From JAGLHV01 sp023132075 [NCBI: bacterium] (GTDB taxonomy: Bacteria > CBDUZB01 > JAGLHV01): DNA of 8,242 nt. The notes below the pieces were generated by a model. That model did not search any database. It saw only the letters and a program-made list of their open reading frames with translations, and was not told the origin of the DNA. Shown here piece after piece: positions 1 through 6,111 of this stretch. Position numbers and translations under genes: made by a program. The stretch lies in contig JAGLYT010000062.1 in NCBI GenBank assembly GCA_023132075.1, forward strand, positions 1-8,242, given 5' to 3'. Each line of letters opens with the position of its first letter. Positions within the stretch are counted from its first letter, which is position 1.

Positions 1-245
1 AATGTCCTCTTTGCGACGGATTTGTTATTAAACGTTTCAGCCGCCGAAGAAGATTATTTTATGGTTGTTCCAATTATCCTGAATGTCACTTTGTATCATG
101 GGATAAACCGGTATTGGAACCCTGTCCCTTATGTGGAGCAAAATATTTGGTTGAAAAAACATCTAAAAAAAACAGCTATATTAAATGTGCCAAAAAAGAA
201 TGTCCTTATCAAAAGCAATTAGATTCAAAACAGGAAATAAAATAA
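1..245 (+). CDS. topA: DNA topoisomerase I, C-terminal zinc-ribbon end (5' truncated)
   Basis: This is the last 80 codons of a gene that enters from the left; the frame starts at base 3 and stops with TAA at 243-245. Two consecutive four-cysteine zinc ribbons are visible. The first is CPLC followed by GCSNYPEC (cysteines at visible residues 1, 4, 22 and 28), and the second is CPLCG followed by KCAKKEC (41, 44, 62 and 67). The [16 protein letters not shown] stretch is characteristic of bacterial type IA topoisomerase I, whose C-terminal fingers bind single-stranded DNA while the enzyme relaxes negative supercoils. The catalytic domain lies outside the window. The stop overlaps the xerC start by one base, a gene order seen in several bacterial groups. 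Identification is firm, although only the tail can be seen. Confidence 0.92.
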
Positions 246-1138
246 TGACAAAAAAACATATAGAAGACTTTATTCTTCATTTACAAATAGAAAAAAATGC
301 TTCTTCATATACGATACAAAATTATAAAATTGATTTAATGCAGGCTTTTGATTTATTTGCTAAAATGAAAATTTTTGAAGCTGGAAATATGGATCGTCTT
401 CACATACGGAATTATTTGTCTGTTTTACAAAATAACGGATATGAAAAAACCAGCATAAAACGAAAACTTTCTGTTTTGCGTTCTTTTTTTTCTTTTCTGG
501 TTAGAGAAAGGGTAATAGATAAAAATCCATTTATTAACATAAGAAGTCCGCGAATAGAAAAAAAAATACCGGTGTTTTTAGATGAAAGTGAGATAAAAAC
601 ATTGCTTGAATTACCAAAAGGAACGACTATTTTGAATTTAAGAGACAAAGCAATAATGGAAACTCTTTATGCTACAGGGATACGGGTGAGTGAGTTAGTG
701 TCTTTAAATATACAGGATTTGGATTTTTTAGGAGAAATGATAAAAATTACCGGAAAGGGAAGAAAACAACGTTTAATTCCTATCGGGAGTGTCGCCTTGG
801 AAGTGTTAAACGATTATCTGGCTTTGAGAGAAAAATATCTTAGTAAAAAGAAGATTTTTCATAATGTGGTTTTTATTAATGCAAGAGGCGGAAGACTTAC
901 AACCAGAAGTGTTTGTCGTGTAATTAATCATTATGTTAAAGTAAGCGGTATAAAAAAGAGTATCACCCCGCATAGTTTACGGCATACTTTTGCTACTCAT
1001 TTATTAAATGCCGGATGTAATTTGCGTGCAGTGCAGGAAATGTTGGGCCACGTTAACATATCCACTACCCAAATTTATACTCATTTATCCACAAGCAGGA
1101 TAAAGAAAATTTATGAAAAAGCCCATCCAAGGGCTTGA
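245..1138 (+). CDS. xerC: Tyrosine recombinase XerC/XerD-type
   Basis: A 297-residue site-specific recombinase of the usual Xer length, expected to resolve chromosome dimers at dif by cutting and rejoining DNA through a 3'-phosphotyrosine. The N-terminal SAM-like core-binding domain covers about residues 1-90 and the catalytic domain about 108-297. The full catalytic set is visible: R147 (ATGIRVSE), K171 (GKGRKQR), H243 and R246 (PHSLRH), H269 (LGH) and nucleophile Y278 (IYTHLS). The ATG at 245 is chosen because it has an AGGAA site eight bases upstream and forms a TAATG overlap with topA, suggesting translational coupling; an in-frame ATG at 185 would intrude deep into topA. The symbol xerC rests on the topA linkage, and XerD or a sole Xer protein is not excluded. 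Confidence 0.92.
   Translation: MTKKHIEDFILHLQIEKNASSYTIQNYKIDLMQAFDLFAKMKIFEAGNMDRLHIRNYLSVLQNNGYEKTSIKRKLSVLRSFFSFLVRERVIDKNPFINIRSPRIEKKIPVFLDESEIKTLLELPKGTTILNLRDKAIMETLYATGIRVSELVSLNIQDLDFLGEMIKITGKGRKQRLIPIGSVALEVLNDYLALREKYLSKKKIFHNVVFINARGGRLTTRSVCRVINHYVKVSGIKKSITPHSLRHTFATHLLNAGCNLRAVQEMLGHVNISTTQIYTHLSTSRIKKIYEKAHPRA
1119..1136. other. Hairpin at the xerC stop codon
   Basis: AAGCCC (1119-1124) and GGGCTT (1131-1136) form a perfect 6-bp stem around a 6-base loop, ending on the first base of the xerC TGA stop. On the + strand no T-run follows, so it is not a standard terminator for xerC. Read on the - strand, the stem is followed directly by a short T-run, as in an intrinsic terminator, but no convergent gene is seen. 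It may affect read-through or RNA stability between xerC and the next gene, or be chance. Confidence 0.35.
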
Positions 1139-1172
1139 GTCTAATAAAAATTATTATAAAAGGTTTAAAAAA

Positions 1173-1589
1173 ATGACAAAAGAGATAAAGAATAATTTTC
1201 CGGGTGAATTTAATGACACACAAGATACAACTGTCTTTTTGGAAACAGAATTAGTTTTACAGGATTCGATGTCAGCAGATATTGTCATGGCTCATAAACT
1301 AAAAAAAAGGGATTTGGTTTTAGCAAAAATTGTAGACCAGCGTGATATAGCTCAATATCTTGCACATTTATTAGGAGGTAAAAAGGAAGAAAAAGTTGTT
1401 CCTTTAGCCATTGCTGTTGACAGAATAGAAGTAGATGAGAAAAAAGTTAAAGTATATACTATTTTTAGTCCTCGAGTAGTCGGTATATCTATTCTTTCTA
1501 TAGAAGACAAGGTGAAAATTGTAAAAAAAGAAAGAACAGGTTTATTTGAAAAAATCTTAGGTTTTTTCTTCAGAAAAAAAGGTGATTAA
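1173..1589 (+). CDS. Protein of unknown function, 138 residues
   Basis: I do not recognise this protein. From the ATG at 1173 it has 138 residues, no signal peptide and no clear membrane segment. It looks like a small alpha/beta protein: a polar N-terminus (1-20), a stretch around 21-58 with an MSADIVMAHKLKKRDLVLAKI core, a short helix near 58-68, then alternating hydrophobic strands at 75-117. It ends in a basic, aromatic tail (GLFEKILGFFFRKKGD) that could be an amphipathic membrane- or partner-binding helix. The start is chosen because AAAAGG lies about ten bases upstream; an earlier in-frame ATG at 1113 would overlap xerC by 26 bases and has a weaker site. It begins 34 bases after xerC and is probably cotranscribed with topA-xerC. 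In many Firmicutes this slot holds hslV, but no N-terminal threonine-protease features are seen. Confidence 0.75.
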   Translation: MTKEIKNNFPGEFNDTQDTTVFLETELVLQDSMSADIVMAHKLKKRDLVLAKIVDQRDIAQYLAHLLGGKKEEKVVPLAIAVDRIEVDEKKVKVYTIFSPRVVGISILSIEDKVKIVKKERTGLFEKILGFFFRKKGD

Positions 1590-1620
1590 ATTGAAAGTGT
1601 TACATTTTTACAGTTTTATG

Positions 1621-1650
1621 TTGACATGAAAACAATAATTGTATTAGAAT
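1621..1650 (+). promoter_or_regulatory. Sigma-70-type promoter upstream of the ferredoxin gene
   Basis: TTGACA at 1621-1626 is a perfect -35 box. TAGAAT at 1645-1650 matches the -10 consensus at five of six positions, and the spacer is 18 bp. Transcription would start near 1657, about 50 bases before the ferredoxin ATG. It sits in the only gap of more than 40 bases between 1139 and 5696, so it probably drives the whole run from the ferredoxin to the THEP1-type NTPase. Confidence 0.7.
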
Positions 1651-1706
1651 GAATGAGGATTTGATCGACAATGGCGTAGAAATAAAAGGGGGGGAGAAAG
1701 AGGAAA

Positions 1707-1898
1707 ATGAAAGTAGAAATTATTGATGAATTGTGTACAGGATGTGGACTTTGTATTGATACATGTGCAGATTTGTTCGATATGGAGGAAAGTACAGTGA
1801 CAGTGAAAGTGGAAATTGTTCCACCGGAACAAGAAGGTTGTTGTAGAGAAGCTGCGGAAAATTGTCCAATGGAAGCAATAAAAATAGAAGAAAATTAA
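1707..1898 (+). CDS. Single [4Fe-4S] cluster ferredoxin
   Basis: A 63-residue acidic, soluble electron carrier. The cluster ligands are C10, C13 and C16 (CTGCGLC) plus remote C53 in ENCP, the pattern of monocluster ferredoxins such as those of Thermotoga and Desulfovibrio. The second cluster of the 2[4Fe-4S] clostridial type is absent. C20 and either C45 or C46 lie where the family often has a structural disulfide. A strong purine-rich ribosome site (GGAGAAAGAGGAA) follows a run of seven G at 1688-1694 and ends just before the ATG. The gene is first after the promoter at 1621, and sppA starts 39 bases downstream. It could donate electrons to the radical SAM protein encoded downstream, but nothing in the sequence proves this partnership. 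Confidence 0.9.
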   Translation: MKVEIIDELCTGCGLCIDTCADLFDMEESTVTVKVEIVPPEQEGCCREAAENCPMEAIKIEEN

Positions 1899-1937
1899 GT
1901 TTTATTATCATTTCAGTATTAAAATTTGAGGACTATT

Positions 1938-2846
1938 ATGAAAAAGCGAAAAATTATTTTTTTAATTGTTTTGTTATATCTTTTCTCAGTGGTTTTAGGG
2001 ATCATTTCTGTAATAAAACCAATTCCTGAATCTTTGCAAGGAATTGCTATTGTCCACATATACGGACCCATTAGAGTTGGAGATAAGGCAAGTTCATGGC
2101 CGGGGACCTTACGAGGGTCCGATAGTATCGTTAAAAAATTGAAAGAACTTGGGGATAATAAAGCGGTAAAAGTGGTGATTTTGCGAATTAATAGTCCCGG
2201 AGGAAGTGTAGCAGCGGTTCAGGAGATTTATACCGAGGTACTTAAAATTAGGGAAAAAGGTAAAAAAGTTGTTGCTTCAATGGGTGATGTTGCTGCTTCG
2301 GGTGGATACTATATTGCTTGTGCTGCGGATAAAATCATGGCTAATCCCGGAACCCTAACGGGTAGTATTGGTGTAATTATGATGATAGAAAATGTTGAAA
2401 TGTTGTTTACTAAAATCGGAATAGAAACAAATGTTATTAAAAGCGGACAATATAAAGATATCGGTTCTTTTGCCCGTAAAATGACTGAGGAGGAAAAAGG
2501 AATACTCCAAGGGATTATAGATAATGCTTTCGGACAATTCGTTTATGCCATTGCTAAAGGAAGGGATATAGATAAAGATGAAGTTCTTTCATTGGCTGAT
2601 GGAAGAATCTTTACCGGAGAACAAGCAAAAGAAAATGGATTAATTGATGAATTAGGGAATAAAGAAGATGCAATAAAATTAGCTGCAGAATTAGCCGGCA
2701 TTAAAAAGAAACCGAAAATCATATCAAGTTTTGAATCTCCGCTGGGTAATGCTTTACAAATAATGGGTAATTATAAAAATCCCTATAGTATTTTTAGTAA
2801 TATCTTTCCCGAACAAAAGGTACGGCTTGAATACATGTTAAAATAA
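1938..2846 (+). CDS. sppA: Signal peptide peptidase SppA, short (single-domain) type
   Basis: A 302-residue membrane-anchored serine protease of the S49 family that degrades signal peptides left in the membrane after secretion. Residues about 5-26 form an N-terminal transmembrane anchor, and the protease domain follows from about 35. S121 (DVAASGGYYIA) is the expected nucleophile and K173 (SGQYKDIG) the general base. The 52-residue spacing equals that of Bacillus subtilis SppA (S147/K199), as I recall it. The NSPGGS (85-90) and TGSIGV (141-146) motifs are also present. The length fits the Gram-positive/archaeal half-size form that works as an oligomer, not the duplicated E. coli form. The ATG at 1938 has GAGGA five bases upstream; an in-frame TTG at 1926 sits on that ribosome site and is less likely. 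The Yip1-like gene begins nine bases after the stop. Confidence 0.93.
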   Translation: MKKRKIIFLIVLLYLFSVVLGIISVIKPIPESLQGIAIVHIYGPIRVGDKASSWPGTLRGSDSIVKKLKELGDNKAVKVVILRINSPGGSVAAVQEIYTEVLKIREKGKKVVASMGDVAASGGYYIACAADKIMANPGTLTGSIGVIMMIENVEMLFTKIGIETNVIKSGQYKDIGSFARKMTEEEKGILQGIIDNAFGQFVYAIAKGRDIDKDEVLSLADGRIFTGEQAKENGLIDELGNKEDAIKLAAELAGIKKKPKIISSFESPLGNALQIMGNYKNPYSIFSNIFPEQKVRLEYMLK

Positions 2847-2855
2847 TCTAACCGG

Positions 2856-3446
2856 ATGGATTTATTTAGGAGAAAGAATATTTTAGAAACAATTTATGAT
2901 TTTTTTGAAAATCCTCAAGGGACAATGGAAAAAGTTATTAATTTAAAATCATCTAAGTGGTGGTTTTTTTTATTTGTTTTCATTGGTATTTTCAGTTATG
3001 TTGCCAGTTGTTCTTTTCTTTTTTTTAAAAAATTCAATATGATACAATTAGTAGGTAAATGGTTCGTTTTTTTAACTATTCTTTATTTGTTTTGTCACGT
3101 TAATATTGTTTTCTTTGATTTAGTGGCTAAATGGTATGGTAAAGAACCGTCATTAAATGAACTTTTTGCTATATCGGGTTTTAATTTTTTATTTGCAACC
3201 TTGTTAATTCCTCTTTCTTTAATTTGTAAATATCTCATTCCGTTAAGATTTCTTATTTATGGTATTATTCTCTTTATTTTTACATTCTGGATTTTAAAAC
3301 TTCAATTCTTGGGTATAAAAAAAATTTATAATTTAAAAAATATTGAAGTATTTTTGATGTTAACAAGTTCATTACTCATCGAGATATTATTATTAGGTGC
3401 AGGTGTTTTTTTGTTTTTGTTAACATTTGTTGTTGCCATTCTATAA
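2856..3446 (+). CDS. Yip1-family-like integral membrane protein
   Basis: A 196-residue, very hydrophobic protein with about five membrane segments (near residues 36-57, 69-92, 107-126, 132-150 and 166-193) and a basic, amphipathic N-terminus. The layout resembles bacterial Yip1/YIP1-domain proteins: a cytoplasmic helix with a FFENPQGTM stretch, then a first membrane helix, then an FDLVAKWYGKEPSLNELFAISGFN-like loop before the third. Bacterial members have no settled function. It lies nine bases after sppA and four before the radical SAM gene, so it is within the operon. The ATG has only a poor ribosome site (ACCGG), suggesting translation coupled to sppA. The family call rests on pattern and topology, with no catalytic motif; a generic membrane protein is the alternative. 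Confidence 0.65.
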   Translation: MDLFRRKNILETIYDFFENPQGTMEKVINLKSSKWWFFLFVFIGIFSYVASCSFLFFKKFNMIQLVGKWFVFLTILYLFCHVNIVFFDLVAKWYGKEPSLNELFAISGFNFLFATLLIPLSLICKYLIPLRFLIYGIILFIFTFWILKLQFLGIKKIYNLKNIEVFLMLTSSLLIEILLLGAGVFLFLLTFVVAIL

Positions 3447-3449
3447 AAG

Positions 3450-4331
3450 ATGACACATTATGCATTAAGTAGCAAAAAGCTTGCTGTTTTGCTTGAGAAA
3501 TGTACTCTTTGTCCCCGACAATGTAAAGTTAATCGCCTAAAGGGAGAAAAAGGGTTTTGCCGGGCAGGGAAAGATCCTGTAATTTCGAGTTTTAATCTCC
3601 ATTTTGGAGAAGAACCGCCCATTTCAGGGATTAAGGGTTCAGGAACAATTTTTTTTACCCATTGCAATTTGCGTTGTGTATTTTGTCAAAATTATCCAAT
3701 AAGCCAATTAGGGAACGGTAAAGAGATTTCTATTGAAAAATTATCACAAATAATGCTTAAATTACAAGAAGATGGAGCTTGTAATATAAATTTGGTTACT
3801 CCGACACATTTTGTCCCTCAAATAATAGAAGCATATTACCTGGCAAGAAAGAAACATCTGCAAATTCCGTTAGTTTATAATTGCAGTGGTTATGAATCCA
3901 TAGAAACATTGAAGTTGTTAGAGGGAATAGTAGATATTTATATGCCGGATTCAAAATATAGTAATAATAATATGGCATTGAGATATTCAAATAGTTTTGA
4001 CTATTGGCAGATAAACAAACTTGCTTTAAAGGAAATGTTTCGGCAAGTAGGGGAATTGAAGTTTAATAAACAAGGAATTGCTATCAGAGGACTATTAGTC
4101 CGTCATCTGGTTTTGCCGAAAAACATTTCCGGTTCACGGGAAATTTTTCGTTTTATTGCCCGGGAAATTTCTCCGAACACTTATATGAGCATTATGTCTC
4201 AATACCATCCGGCACACTTATCTTATCAATTTACTGAATTATCGCGTAAAATTAGCATAAAAGAGTATCAGGAAGTTTTGAGAATTGCTGACAAGGAAGG
4301 GCTTCATCAAGGATGGAGACAAGAATTATAA
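3450..4331 (+). CDS. PflX-type radical SAM protein (COG1313-like)
   Basis: A 293-residue radical SAM enzyme of unknown substrate. C72, C76 and C79 (HCNLRCVFCQN) form the CxxxCxxC motif that holds the SAM-binding [4Fe-4S] cluster. An upstream cysteine set, C18, C21 and C25 (CTLCPRQC) with C37 (GFC), may bind a second metal centre. HFGEEPPISG, GSGTIFF, VTPTHFVPQI, YNCSGYES and VRHLVLP are typical of the PflX/COG1313 group, related to pyruvate formate-lyase activating enzymes. No formate-lyase-like partner is seen nearby. The ATG at 3450 is four bases past the previous stop and lacks a good ribosome site, so translational coupling is likely. It sits 31 bases before a Memo gene, echoing the AmmeMemoRadiSam association, although the classic partner there is a COG1180-type enzyme. 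Confidence 0.88.
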   Translation: MTHYALSSKKLAVLLEKCTLCPRQCKVNRLKGEKGFCRAGKDPVISSFNLHFGEEPPISGIKGSGTIFFTHCNLRCVFCQNYPISQLGNGKEISIEKLSQIMLKLQEDGACNINLVTPTHFVPQIIEAYYLARKKHLQIPLVYNCSGYESIETLKLLEGIVDIYMPDSKYSNNNMALRYSNSFDYWQINKLALKEMFRQVGELKFNKQGIAIRGLLVRHLVLPKNISGSREIFRFIAREISPNTYMSIMSQYHPAHLSYQFTELSRKISIKEYQEVLRIADKEGLHQGWRQEL

Positions 4332-4344
4332 ACTTGTTTTTTCA

Positions 4345-4353
4345 AAAGGAGAT
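4345..4353 (+). promoter_or_regulatory. Strong ribosome binding site fixing the Memo-gene start
   Basis: AAAGGAGAT is a near-perfect anti-16S complement ending nine bases before the ATG at 4363. It decides in favour of this start over an in-frame upstream start at 4285, which would lie inside the radical SAM gene. It is the best ribosome site in the middle operon, so the Memo protein may be made at a higher level than its neighbours. Confidence 0.8.
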
Positions 4354-4362
4354 ATCTTAATT

Positions 4363-5163
4363 ATGATAACACGTAAACCTGCACATTCAGGCATGTTTTA
4401 TCCGGCAGATTCTTATCAATTAAAAAAAATGGTTGAGCAATACATAATTGCTTCTACCCGAAAACAAGACATTATCGGGATAGTTAGTCCGCACGCAGGA
4501 TATATTTATTCCGGCAAAGTAGCAGGGGCGGTTTATTCTCAAATAAAAACCTGTTCTGTTTTTATTATTATCGGTCCTAATCATTCGGGTAGGGGGAAAA
4601 AATCCGCAATTATGACTGAAGGGGAATGGATAATGCCTTTTGGGGGAATAAAAATTAATTCTTCTTTAGCTGAAAAAATTCTTTCGCATTCAGTTTTTTT
4701 AGAAGAAGATGAAAAAGCTCACTTATATGAGCATTCATTAGAAGTACAATTGCCTTTTATTCAACACTTAAATTCTTCAGCACAGATTGTCCCCATTTGT
4801 ATGAAGGATTATAGTCTCAATGTTTGTCAGGATATAGGAAAAGCAATTGCTAAGTCTGTTACAGAAGAAAAGGTGATGATTGTCGCCAGTAGTGATATGA
4901 CTCATTATGAATCACAGGAAATAGCAGAACAAAAAGACAAACTCGCTATAGAAAAAATATTGAATATTGATCCGGAAGGATTATTGACAATTGTCGAAAA
5001 AGAAGGGATTTCAATGTGTGGAGCAGGCCCTGTAGCCACAATGCTTTATGCATGTAAAAAATTAGCTGCTCGACACAGCCAGCTTATTTTATACCAAACC
5101 AGCGGAGATATTACTCATGATTATCATTCCGTTGTAGGATATGCAGGAATAATTATTAAATAA
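4363..5163 (+). CDS. Memo-family protein (AmmeMemoRadiSam system protein B-like)
   Basis: A 266-residue cytosolic protein of the Memo family, which shares the fold of class III extradiol dioxygenases but whose bacterial role is unknown. Family motifs appear in order: RKPAHSGMFYPAD near the N-terminus, SPHAGYIYSG with H44, GPNHSG with H74, EHSLEVQLPF with H124, SSDMTHYE with D178 and H181, and MCGAGPV with C219. H44, H74 and C219 correspond to the metal-site residues reported for human MEMO1. Length is close to the family norm. Neighbours are the radical SAM gene upstream and the NTPase gene 14 bases downstream, so all three are probably cotranscribed. The AMMECR1 partner (system protein A) is absent from this window. 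The family call is firm; no substrate can be inferred. Confidence 0.92.
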   Translation: MITRKPAHSGMFYPADSYQLKKMVEQYIIASTRKQDIIGIVSPHAGYIYSGKVAGAVYSQIKTCSVFIIIGPNHSGRGKKSAIMTEGEWIMPFGGIKINSSLAEKILSHSVFLEEDEKAHLYEHSLEVQLPFIQHLNSSAQIVPICMKDYSLNVCQDIGKAIAKSVTEEKVMIVASSDMTHYESQEIAEQKDKLAIEKILNIDPEGLLTIVEKEGISMCGAGPVATMLYACKKLAARHSQLILYQTSGDITHDYHSVVGYAGIIIK

Positions 5164-5177
5164 CAAGAGAACATATT

Positions 5178-5696
5178 ATGGTAAAAAATATCTTTTTGAC
5201 CGGATTGCCTTGTAGCGGCAAAACTTCTTTAATAAAAGAAATAGTGAAGGAATTAAAGGGTAAACAAGGCGGCTTTTATACTTCTGAAATTAAAGAAAAA
5301 AACAAACGTATTGGATTTAAAATTGAAAATTTTAATGGAAAAAGTGGTTTGCTTGCCCATATTGATTTCAAAAGTCCTTACAGGATTAGTAAATATGGTG
5401 TCAATTTGAAAGAGTTGAATAAAATTGGTACTCATTCGATTGTGAAAGCAATGCAGGAAAGTGAATTTATTGTTGTTGATGAAATAGGAAAAATGGAATT
5501 ACTTTCTCCCCAATTTAAAAAAGTTGTGTGGAAAGCTTTAGAAACTAATAAGAAAATAATAGGAACTATTAAAGTAAAACATGATTATTTTACTGCAGAA
5601 ATAAAAAAAAGAAACGACACCCGCATATTTGAACTTACCAAAACAAATAGGAAAGAGGTTAAAAGAAAAATCTTAAAACTCCTATTAGAAAACTAA
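5178..5696 (+). CDS. THEP1-type nucleoside-triphosphatase (NTPase_1 family)
   Basis: A 172-residue P-loop protein of the THEP1/COG1618 family, best known from thermophiles and archaea, which hydrolyses ATP and GTP and other NTPs in vitro. The Walker A motif is GLPCSGKTS (residues 9-17, K15) and the Walker B is FIVVDEIGKMEL (D101, E102). The family-specific GGFYTSEIKE, IGFKI, KYGVN and TKTNR stretches are all present, and length is normal. The cellular role is unsettled; related human NTPCR has been linked to nucleotide or RNA metabolism. The ATG lies 14 bases after the Memo stop with only a weak AGAGA ribosome site. It is the last gene of the operon before the 415-base intergenic region, and no strong terminator follows directly. 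Confidence 0.92.
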   Translation: MVKNIFLTGLPCSGKTSLIKEIVKELKGKQGGFYTSEIKEKNKRIGFKIENFNGKSGLLAHIDFKSPYRISKYGVNLKELNKIGTHSIVKAMQESEFIVVDEIGKMELLSPQFKKVVWKALETNKKIIGTIKVKHDYFTAEIKKRNDTRIFELTKTNRKEVKRKILKLLLEN

Positions 5697-5752
5697 TTTT
5701 AAAACTCCCATTTTTTTAAACTGATTTTTTTTATCTTTTAACCAATTCAAAT

Positions 5753-5795
5753 TCCGCCTTAACAGATTGGCGGATCCTCCTTAAAGATTGGAGGA
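5753..5795. repeat. Two tandem hairpin repeats with a compensatory stem change
   Basis: Copy 1 is TCCGCC, loop TTAACAGATT, GGCGGA (5753-5774). Copy 2 is TCCTCC, loop TTAAAGATT, GGAGGA (5775-5795). The copies abut exactly and each forms a perfect 6-bp stem. They differ by one loop base and by a paired change, G-C in copy 1 against T-A in copy 2, so base pairing is kept. Neither is followed directly by a T-run, so they do not look like ordinary terminators. They may be REP-like dispersed elements or RNA 3' ends. Confidence 0.75.
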
Positions 5796-5809
5796 CAGAC
5801 AGGCAAATT

Positions 5810-5831
5810 CAACTGTCTTTCAACTGTCTTT
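5810..5831. repeat. Perfect 11-bp tandem duplication
   Basis: CAACTGTCTTT occurs twice back to back (5810-5820 and 5821-5831) and runs into a T-tract. A 10-base part, ACTGTCTTTC, recurs exactly at 5971-5980 in the heptamer block, linking the two repeat areas. Confidence 0.85.
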
Positions 5832-5878
5832 TTTTTCTTTTCACTTTGTGCCAATCCTTGTCTTTGTTTTTTTGTAGT

Positions 5879-5899
5879 TAACTAATAACTTATAACTGT
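5879..5899. repeat. Three tandem heptamers, TAACTNN
   Basis: TAACTAA, TAACTTA and TAACTGT follow each other without gaps. They share the first five bases and vary in the last two, in the manner of short tandemly repeated repetitive sequences. Confidence 0.6.
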
Positions 5900-5903
5900 A
5901 CTT

Positions 5904-5927
5904 TTTGTGCCTTGATGCCTTTGTGCC
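5904..5927. repeat. Three tandem octamers, TTTGTGCC-like
   Basis: TTTGTGCC, TTGATGCC and TTTGTGCC are contiguous (5904-5911, 5912-5919 and 5920-5927). A further exact TTTGTGCC stands alone at 5845-5852. Confidence 0.65.
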
Positions 5928-5934
5928 TGTTTTT

Positions 5935-5976
5935 GTCTGTTATCTGTTGTCTATCGACTGTGGACTATGGACTGTC
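5935..5976. repeat. Six tandem degenerate heptamers, NWCTRTN
   Basis: Cut in sevens from 5935, the sequence reads GTCTGTT, ATCTGTT, GTCTATC, GACTGTG, GACTATG and GACTGTC. All six fit NWCTRTN and the last three fit GACTRTS. The 7-base phase holds for 42 bases, which suggests slippage expansion followed by drift. Confidence 0.65.
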
Positions 5977-6000
5977 TTTCTGTCTGTGAAGTGTTATCGG

Positions 6001-6029
6001 TTGACAGTTTTTTGTTTTTTATGTATAAT
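6001..6029 (+). promoter_or_regulatory. Perfect consensus sigma-70 promoter for mgtE
   Basis: TTGACA (6001-6006) and TATAAT (6024-6029) match the consensus at all twelve positions, with the ideal 17-bp spacer. The expected start near 6036 leaves a leader of about 75 bases before mgtE. No operator or competing site is obvious around it. Confidence 0.85.
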
Positions 6030-6052
6030 CAAAAAAATAATTGAATTTTTTA

Positions 6053-6088
6053 ACAAAAAACATTTTGTAAGCGGTATTTTTACCTGCT
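6053..6088 (+). other. Two small hairpins in the mgtE leader
   Basis: ACAAAA/TTTTGT (6053-6068) gives a 6-bp AT stem. AGC-GGTA/TACC-T-GCT (6070-6088) gives a 7-bp stem with one bulged T and a TTTT loop. Both fall between the expected transcript start and the ribosome site AGGGA (6102-6106). The leader is too short for a known M-box magnesium riboswitch, and any regulatory role is speculative. Confidence 0.25.
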
Positions 6089-6111
6089 CAAGATAAAAAA
6101 CAGGGATAATA

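What the first reader, a model, noticed from the sequence alone, without database searches (positions are those of the whole stretch)
3450..5163. Memo protein paired with a PflX-type radical SAM enzyme and no AMMECR1
The known AmmeMemoRadiSam set couples AMMECR1, Memo and a radical SAM protein usually of the COG1180 type. Here the radical SAM protein has the COG1313 hallmarks (HFGEEPPISG, VRHLVLP), AMMECR1 is not in the window, and a THEP1-type NTPase follows. This may be a variant of a still-unexplained conserved modification system.
Basis: partly seen in the sequence, partly recalled or inferred. Interest (0 to 1): 0.6.

Follow-up and report, generated by a model that had tools for sequence, protein, structure and literature searches.

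The report
Memo gene beside unusual radical-SAM gene
A gene for an iron-binding Memo protein sits in a tight gene array with an uncharacterised radical-SAM enzyme instead of its textbook partners; the pairing recurs in several bacterial groups, but a textbook radical-SAM partner is still present elsewhere in this genome, so it may be a variant of an unsolved system or only conserved gene order.

Summary
The window has a tight array: ferredoxin, SppA, Yip1, radical SAM (3450-4331), Memo (4363-5163), THEP1. The radical SAM protein is not TIGR04337 (21.2 bits, cut-off 220); no AMMECR1 was found in the 87%-complete genome. Radical SAM-Memo adjacency recurs: 3 of 3 genomes of the window's phylum, 5 of 5 of a second small phylum, at least 8 of 79 carriers in Elusimicrobiota, and two further families. 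THEP1 was adjacent only in the window's genus. In 23 genomes with the window-type enzyme, 19 have Memo and TIGR04337, 3 neither, 1 Memo alone; the window-type enzyme persists without Memo, and only 18 of 216 of its loci have Memo within 2.2 kb. Found here: this radical SAM family is a near full-length relative of TIGR04337 sharing its N-terminal four-cysteine motif, and the stand-alone Memo beside it groups apart (support 91/82) from AMMECR1-fused Memo, keeping the predicted iron ligands. Best reading, moderate confidence: a parallel radical-SAM/iron-Memo module without linked AMMECR1; main rival: conserved gene order without joint function.

The parts
1621..1650 (+). sigma-70-like promoter (TTGACA, 18 nt, TAGAAT; 11 of 12) upstream of the array
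   Evidence: promoter-like sites in the region are no more frequent than in shuffles (20 vs 19.3), so only its score and place speak for it
1707..1898 (+). 63-aa single-cluster 4Fe-4S ferredoxin, kept in both congeners
   Evidence: Fer4_13 43.9 bits; 53 of 63 and 50 of 63 residues identical in L027 and L028
1938..2846 (+). SppA-type signal peptide peptidase (S49); start codon chosen by me
   Evidence: TIGR00706 249.1 bits, cut-off 155.45
2856..3446 (+). Yip1-domain membrane protein
   Evidence: PF04893 41.7 bits; the order SppA, Yip1, radical SAM also in Elusimicrobia and the second phylum
3450..4331 (+). radical SAM enzyme, COG1313/PflX type (label recalled)
   Evidence: PF04055 36 bits; TIGR04337 21.2 bits, below cut-off 220; AlphaFold mean pLDDT 93.8, nearest PDB fold PFL activating enzyme
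3501..3560 (+). N-terminal cysteine motif C18, C21, C25, C37, also found in TIGR04337
   Evidence: 98 of 98 sequences keep all four; aligned with the TIGR04337 cysteines
3600..3629 (+). HFGEEPPISG motif, residues 51-60
3663..3686 (+). radical SAM motif CX3CX2C: C72, C76, C79
   Evidence: 98 of 98
4098..4118 (+). VRHLVLP motif, residues 217-223
4363..5163 (+). stand-alone Memo (called MemoB here)
   Evidence: TIGR04336 313.5 bits; model mean pLDDT 96.5, TM 0.88 to iron-bound human MEMO1 7kq8
4492..5019 (+). span of the predicted iron ligands H44 (4492-4494), H74 (4582-4584), C219 (5017-5019), matching human H49, H81, C244
   Evidence: alignment; kept in both Memo groups; human ligands from PMC11081632, passages
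5178..5696 (+). THEP1-type NTPase; adjacency seen only in the window's genus

Best explanation
The pair is a parallel version of the radical-SAM/Memo module without a linked AMMECR1. Shown by sequence: this radical SAM family and the TIGR04337 enzyme of the known set are relatives over nearly their whole common length with the same two cysteine motifs; MemoB keeps the predicted iron ligands; in two Endomicrobia the two genes overlap by ATGA. Inferred: the radical SAM enzyme, reduced by ferredoxin (one is encoded at the head of this array), makes a 5'-deoxyadenosyl radical and modifies a C-H position of a substrate; MemoB, a LigB-fold iron protein in what is probably an anaerobe and so perhaps acting without O2, does a second redox or lyase step on the same substrate. 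The substrate is unknown. Some neighbours in relatives (endonuclease V, Fpg, PolX, D-Tyr-tRNA deacylase, AlaRS, CCA-adding enzyme) lean towards a nucleotide or nucleic acid, others (M16 peptidases, SppA, ABC transporter) do not. THEP1, SppA and Yip1 are taken as companions, not parts.
For: Adjacency in several lineages: 3 of 3 genomes of the window's phylum; 5 of 5 of the phylum of G005 (one gene between in G025, and in G027 only Memo's first 58 residues before the contig ends); at least 8 of 79 COG1313 carriers among 340 Elusimicrobiota within 2 kb (the Memo list was cut); radical SAM, EndoV, Memo in L241 and L242; Memo-AMMECR1 fusion, radical SAM, EndoV in L306. On a FastTree tree of 233 radical SAM rows, the 18 with Memo within 2.2 kb need 11 gains or losses, at least 5 of them forced by starred branches (L306 sits on a flagged long branch). 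ATGA overlap in L067 and L077. Profile match to TIGR04337: probability 99.1, E 1.9e-18, 246 columns. Control: of the own genome's 22 radical SAM proteins, apart from the query itself, only the TIGR04337 protein L008 aligned through the N-terminal cysteines (97.8, 254 columns; next 90.6 over 149 and 87.4 over 74 columns; some proteins are cut by contig ends). In 340 Elusimicrobiota 14 of 22 genomes with a stand-alone Memo carry COG1313 against 65 of the other 318 (Fisher p 3e-5, not corrected for kinship, the 22 picked by hand from a cut list). Four genomes hold the pair and no AMMECR1 match: G000, G002, G006, G322.
Against: Only 18 of 216 scorable COG1313 loci have Memo within 2.2 kb; in the domain-wide sample 4 of 145 loci, one of them a place already counted (L246 has the coordinates of G005's). 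COG1313 is kept in G017, G018 and G024, which have no Memo, no AMMECR1 and no TIGR04337 above cut-off. Across 23 genomes that all hold COG1313 by choice, Memo goes with TIGR04337: 19 both, 3 neither, 1 (G009) Memo alone (p 0.002, not corrected for kinship). 8 of the 22 Elusimicrobiota with stand-alone Memo have no COG1313 match. SppA, Yip1 and GalT keep their places too, so adjacency may be plain gene order. The most frequent neighbours of COG1313 in the 77 loci tallied are M16 peptidases (21 loci).
Confidence: 0.42

Rival explanations
1. Conserved gene order only: sppA, yip1, COG1313, memo (with endoV, galT or polX in relatives) is an old housekeeping string, and Memo's working partner is still TIGR04337, encoded elsewhere. 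The window then shows a scattered AmmeMemoRadiSam set whose AMMECR1 is lost or lies in the missing 13% of the genome.
For: SppA, Yip1 and COG1313 stay together in 8 distinct loci without Memo at that place (L029, L030, L032, L046, L177, L178, L180, L182) and SppA, Yip1, Memo stand together without COG1313 in L230. Memo presence goes with TIGR04337 in 23 genomes; G000, G002 and G006 have a single Memo, TIGR04337 above cut-off and no AMMECR1 match.
Against: G009 has Memo and AMMECR1 but no TIGR04337 match (completeness not told). The COG1313-Memo adjacency also occurs outside the SppA string (Endomicrobia; L241, L242, L306). The kinship of this family with TIGR04337 would be a coincidence.
Confidence: 0.38
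2. COG1313 has taken TIGR04337's place as the radical SAM partner of Memo.
For: Related sequence; G009 has AMMECR1, Memo beside COG1313 and no TIGR04337 match; in L306 a Memo-AMMECR1 fusion lies beside COG1313.
Against: TIGR04337 above cut-off is present in the own genome, both congeners and 19 of 23 genomes tested.
Confidence: 0.1
3. A Memo, COG1313, THEP1 and ferredoxin system special to the window's genus.
For: The order ferredoxin, SppA, Yip1, radical SAM, Memo, THEP1 is kept in all 3 genomes of the genus.
Against: THEP1 was not seen next to the pair in any other lineage examined; three close genomes cannot tell function from recent shared ancestry.
Confidence: 0.05

Closest known systems
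AmmeMemoRadiSam set (TIGR04335, TIGR04336, TIGR04337)
   Same: Has protein B (Memo, TIGR04336) and a radical SAM enzyme with the same N-terminal four-cysteine and CX3CX2C motifs
   Different: The linked radical SAM is another subfamily (21.2 bits, cut-off 220) and lacks the C-terminal CX2C pairs of TIGR04337; protein A (AMMECR1) is not found in the genome; TIGR04337 lies elsewhere
Human MEMO1
   Same: Fold (TM 0.88-0.90) and His-His-Cys metal ligands
   Different: About 22% identity; no dioxygenase activity has been detected for human MEMO1 (PMC11081632, passages)
Pyruvate formate-lyase activating enzyme (PDB 3c8f, 8fo0, 3cb8)
   Same: Nearest solved fold of the radical SAM enzyme (TM 0.60-0.62 by query)
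   Different: TIGR02493 16.1 bits, cut-off 231.75; the N-terminal cysteine motif lies outside the part aligned by sequence; no glycyl radical enzyme among the window proteins scanned
THEP1 (NTPase_1)
   Same: PF03266 and NF010248 above cut-off
   Different: Its place beside the pair was seen only in the window's genus

Membership tests
AmmeMemoRadiSam | protein B, Memo (TIGR04336) | tested here: met
   313.5 bits, cut-off 26
AmmeMemoRadiSam | linked radical SAM of TIGR04337 | tested here: not met
   21.2 bits, cut-off 220; an unlinked TIGR04337 at G000:C27 scores 357.1 bits
AmmeMemoRadiSam | protein A, AMMECR1, linked or in the genome | tested here: not met
   PF01871: 0 hits in G000, 86.7% complete, and in G002, 97% complete; present in congener G001
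COG1313 (PflX) | match to the COG1313 model | not testable with these tools
   no COG library; among NCBIfam and Pfam only PF04055 is above cut-off
   present, core residues invariant in 38 sequences
PFL activating enzyme | TIGR02493 above cut-off | tested here: not met
   16.1 bits, cut-off 231.75
Memo | His-His-Cys metal ligands | tested here: met
   H44, H74, C219 kept in at least 90% of the 19 long-frame (AMMECR1-fused) and 29 stand-alone sequences
Memo | iron binding or enzyme activity | not testable with these tools
   needs protein
THEP1 | PF03266 above cut-off | tested here: met
   155.3 bits, cut-off 23.9

The most novel reading that the evidence does not exclude
COG1313 and the stand-alone Memo are a second, AMMECR1-independent radical-SAM/iron-enzyme pair that act one after the other on a damaged or hypermodified nucleotide, tied to endonuclease V and other nucleic-acid quality-control genes; the AMMECR1 set would then be one branch of a wider class of radical-SAM/Memo modules.
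Probability: 0.17. Interest if true: 0.75.

Novelty: new variant of a known kind. Interest (0 to 1): 0.4.

Why it matters
AMMECR1 and Memo are widely conserved families without a known molecular task: a review of archaeal dark matter lists the AMMECR1 family, found in 429 of 524 archaeal genomes, among top-priority uncharacterised proteins (PMC6393860, passage seen), and the molecular function of human MEMO1 is called unknown (PMC11081632, abstract and passages). Genomes where Memo stands without an AMMECR1 match and next to a different, related radical SAM enzyme separate the contributions of the parts: they offer natural tests of whether Memo's partner is TIGR04337, COG1313 or both, and whether AMMECR1 is needed. 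COG1313-type enzymes themselves had a match in 194 of 386 genomes of a domain-wide sample and I know of no assigned reaction (recall).

Tried and rejected
THEP1 as part of a three-gene system: rejected, seen beside the pair only in the window's genus. COG1313 as outright substitute for TIGR04337: held at 0.1, because TIGR04337 is above cut-off in 19 of 23 genomes. PFL activation: no glycyl radical enzyme among the window proteins scanned and TIGR02493 far below cut-off. A solved relative by sequence: none for the radical SAM protein with phmmer, two weak PFL-AE hits by profile. Literature: searches gave no description of a COG1313-Memo pairing in the listings; the library holds only open-licence papers, the listings were capped, and the paper most likely to discuss Memo-AMMECR1-radical SAM neighbourhoods (Burroughs et al. 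2019, cited in PMC7159879) is not held, so its content is unseen.

Choices and rows dropped; 3 of 80 loci (L049, L084, L087) had no anchor ORF and were left out of the neighbour tally (77 left); 25 loci skipped as second copies or parts of genes already in, L133 and L140 dropped as weak (68.0 and 88.5 bits), leaving 52 rows; the Memos of L241, L242 and L306 came later and are not in that tree; 'fused' there means an open frame over 440 aa (L120 is cut by a contig end). The 22 'stand-alone Memo' Elusimicrobiota were picked by hand from the listed rows (frame under 330 aa, over 205 bits); the list was cut, and rows of G133, G145, G196, G199 and the second row of G345 were left out as unclear; 17 of 233 rows not scorable for want of flank; 27 loci have up to 1.5 kb and 118 up to 3 kb of flank, some cut by contig ends; matches below the end of its list were not examined. 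L323's cut TIGR04337-like frame was not checked with NCBIfam.

Full report
What is there. The window (8242 bases, one contig of a 1.87 Mb, 389-contig assembly, 86.7% complete) holds on the + strand a topoisomerase I tail, a XerC-type recombinase, a 138-158 aa protein without a match, a 63-aa ferredoxin, SppA, a Yip1-domain protein, a radical SAM protein, Memo, a THEP1-type NTPase, MgtE and the start of a response regulator-like protein (the last was not scanned). From SppA to THEP1 the genes are 9, 3, 31 and 14 nt apart. The best promoter-like site upstream (1621-1650, 11 of 12) lies before the ferredoxin and a perfect one (6001-6029) before MgtE, which fits one transcript from ferredoxin to THEP1, though such sites are no more frequent than in shuffled sequence. 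The same array is in the two other genomes of the genus: Memo and THEP1 follow the radical SAM gene, and the ferredoxin is 53 of 63 and 50 of 63 identical.

The radical SAM protein. It passes the radical SAM model of Pfam (36 bits) and no specific model: TIGR04337 21.2 bits against a cut-off of 220, TIGR02493 16.1 against 231.75, TIGR02495 28.4 against 131.15. No COG model was at hand, so COG1313 is a recalled label supported by its two motifs. All of 98 sequences keep C18, C21, C25, C37 and the radical SAM cysteines C72, C76, C79. Profile against profile, the family matches the TIGR04337 enzymes with probability 99.1, E 1.9e-18, 246 columns, 19% identity, the N-terminal cysteines aligned with each other. 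As a control the same profile was held against the 22 radical SAM proteins of the own genome: beside the query itself, only the TIGR04337 protein L008 matched through the N-terminus (97.8, 254 columns); the next two scored 90.6 over 149 and 87.4 over 74 columns, the second being the cut TIGR04337-like protein of C366; some of these proteins are cut by contig ends. TIGR04337 has two further C-terminal CX2C pairs that this family lacks. The AlphaFold model (mean pLDDT 93.8) is nearest to PFL activating enzyme in the PDB, TM 0.60-0.62. So the enzyme is not TIGR04337 but, among what was tested here, its nearest relative.

Memo. The protein is a clear Memo; its model superposes on human MEMO1 with TM 0.88-0.90. 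H44, H74 and C219 correspond to the iron ligands H49, H81, C244 of human MEMO1 (alignment; ligands from PMC11081632, passages). In a tree of 52 Memo sequences all 19 long-frame (AMMECR1-fused) ones fall on one side and 16 of the 17 rows near the COG1313-type gene on the other; the exception, L057, lies about 5 kb from that gene; the dividing branch has support 91/82, below the tool's star, and the root is a midpoint. Both groups keep the ligands.

How often the pair occurs. In a scan of one genome per species (84,980), 358 loci encoded a relative and the best 80 were kept. Memo lies in 10 of the 80: next gene in 7, within 2.2 kb in 8, about 5 kb away in L048 and L057. All 3 held genomes of the window's phylum and all 5 of the phylum of G005 have the pair; in G025 a DUF3108-like gene lies between, and in G027 only Memo's first 58 residues are seen before the contig ends. 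In 340 Elusimicrobiota 79 genomes have the radical SAM gene, 149 have Memo and 124 AMMECR1; at least 8 of the 79 have the two genes within 2 kb (G346, G009, G319, G007, G006, G322 adjacent; G344, G010 with 0.9 and 1.8 kb between), with G011 5 kb, G272 12 kb and G350 16 kb apart and three others on different contigs. A domain-wide sample of 386 genomes gave 194 carriers; of 145 loci examined, 4 have Memo in the flank: L241 and L242 (radical SAM, EndoV, Memo), L246 (the place of G005 again) and L306, where a Memo-AMMECR1 fusion (TIGR04336 237.8, TIGR04335 184.3 bits) precedes radical SAM and EndoV. TIGR04337-like genes lie in the flank in 5 of the 145, four of them confirmed above cut-off. Over 233 distinct radical SAM rows, 18 of 216 scorable ones have Memo within 2.2 kb, and the label needs 11 changes on the tree, at least 5 of them forced by starred branches. 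The pair is thus real and recurrent, but a minority arrangement of a widespread enzyme.

The wider neighbourhood. In the window's phylum, the phylum of G005 and part of Elusimicrobiota the order is SppA, Yip1, radical SAM, then EndoV, nitroreductase or Memo, then a GalT-like gene or PolX. Eight distinct loci have SppA, Yip1 and radical SAM without Memo there, and L230 has SppA, Yip1 and Memo without radical SAM. In Endomicrobia the neighbours are peptide deformylase, D-Tyr-tRNA deacylase and M16 peptidases. In the 77 loci tallied (3 of 80 dropped) M16 peptidases are the most frequent neighbour (21 loci), with AlaRS, peptide deformylase, an ABC transporter ATPase and Memo in 10 each, the CCA-adding enzyme in 9, SppA and D-Tyr-tRNA deacylase in 8 each. 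The lean towards nucleic acids is therefore weak. In L067 and L077 the radical SAM stop and the Memo start overlap as ATGA.

AMMECR1 and TIGR04337. The own genome has no AMMECR1 match and one Memo, but a TIGR04337 protein of 357.1 bits on C27, a cut one of 204.6 bits on C366 and a fragment of 69 bits on C335. G002 (97% complete) has one Memo, no AMMECR1 and three TIGR04337 above cut-off; G001 (94%) has a second Memo fused to AMMECR1 on a 4.8 kb contig and three TIGR04337 above cut-off. That contig's GC (0.350) is somewhat above the pair's contig (0.325), so its binning is not certain. Over 23 genomes, all chosen for holding the radical SAM gene, 19 have Memo and TIGR04337, 3 neither (G017, G018, G024), 1 (G009) Memo without TIGR04337 (p 0.002); AMMECR1 against TIGR04337 gives p 0.067 and Memo against AMMECR1 p 0.02; none is corrected for kinship. 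G000, G002, G006 and G021 have Memo and TIGR04337 without an AMMECR1 match. Of 13 genomes with the pair within 2 kb for which AMMECR1 was searched, 9 have it (G001, G005, G007, G008, G009, G010, G319, G344, G346) and 4 do not (G000, G002, G006, G322).

Reading. Two facts pull apart. The relatedness of this enzyme to TIGR04337, the repeated adjacency and the overlapping genes suggest that it works with Memo. The presence patterns suggest that Memo depends on TIGR04337 and that this enzyme has a life of its own. I hold a parallel module at 0.42 and gene order only at 0.38. In the first, the radical SAM enzyme would activate a C-H bond and the iron site of Memo would carry out the next step on the same substrate; no step of that chemistry is shown. 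AMMECR1 is not tied to either arrangement: it may be present in the genome, fused to another Memo, fused to the Memo beside the radical SAM gene (L306), or not found.

Known or new. The parts are known families. A pairing of Memo with this radical SAM family was not found in the listings of the literature searches made here, but the library is limited and the most relevant paper (Burroughs et al. 2019) could not be read. I file it as a new variant of a known kind, with interest 0.4.

Noticed in passing
L306 (G568:C166) 166-3420: A Memo-AMMECR1 fusion gene, the COG1313-type radical SAM gene and endonuclease V in a row on one strand: AMMECR1 and this radical SAM family can be neighbours.
   Followed up: partly
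L241, L242 and the endonuclease V loci: Endonuclease V recurs next to the COG1313-type gene or next to stand-alone Memo (11 loci, 9 distinct places by contig; L241, L242, L306); in L241 a formamidopyrimidine-DNA glycosylase is two genes upstream.
   Followed up: partly
G009 (L093): Stand-alone AMMECR1 and Memo but no TIGR04337 match; the radical SAM gene beside Memo is COG1313-type. Completeness not told.
   Followed up: no
G002, G001: Three TIGR04337 proteins above cut-off in each genome of about 2 Mb; in G002 with one Memo and no AMMECR1 match.
   Followed up: no
window 1113-1589: ORF of up to 158 aa between XerC and ferredoxin without an NCBIfam or Pfam match.
   Followed up: no
window 5697-6111: About 410 bp non-coding stretch rich in GTCTGT/CTGTCT-like words, with an imperfect 32-nt direct repeat (5844 and 5919) and a perfect sigma-70-like promoter (6001-6029) before MgtE.
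   Followed up: no
L282 (G582:C51) 1-3834: TIGR04337 enzyme, a 230-aa ORF, RNA 3'-phosphate cyclase and the COG1313-type enzyme in a row on one strand.
   Followed up: no
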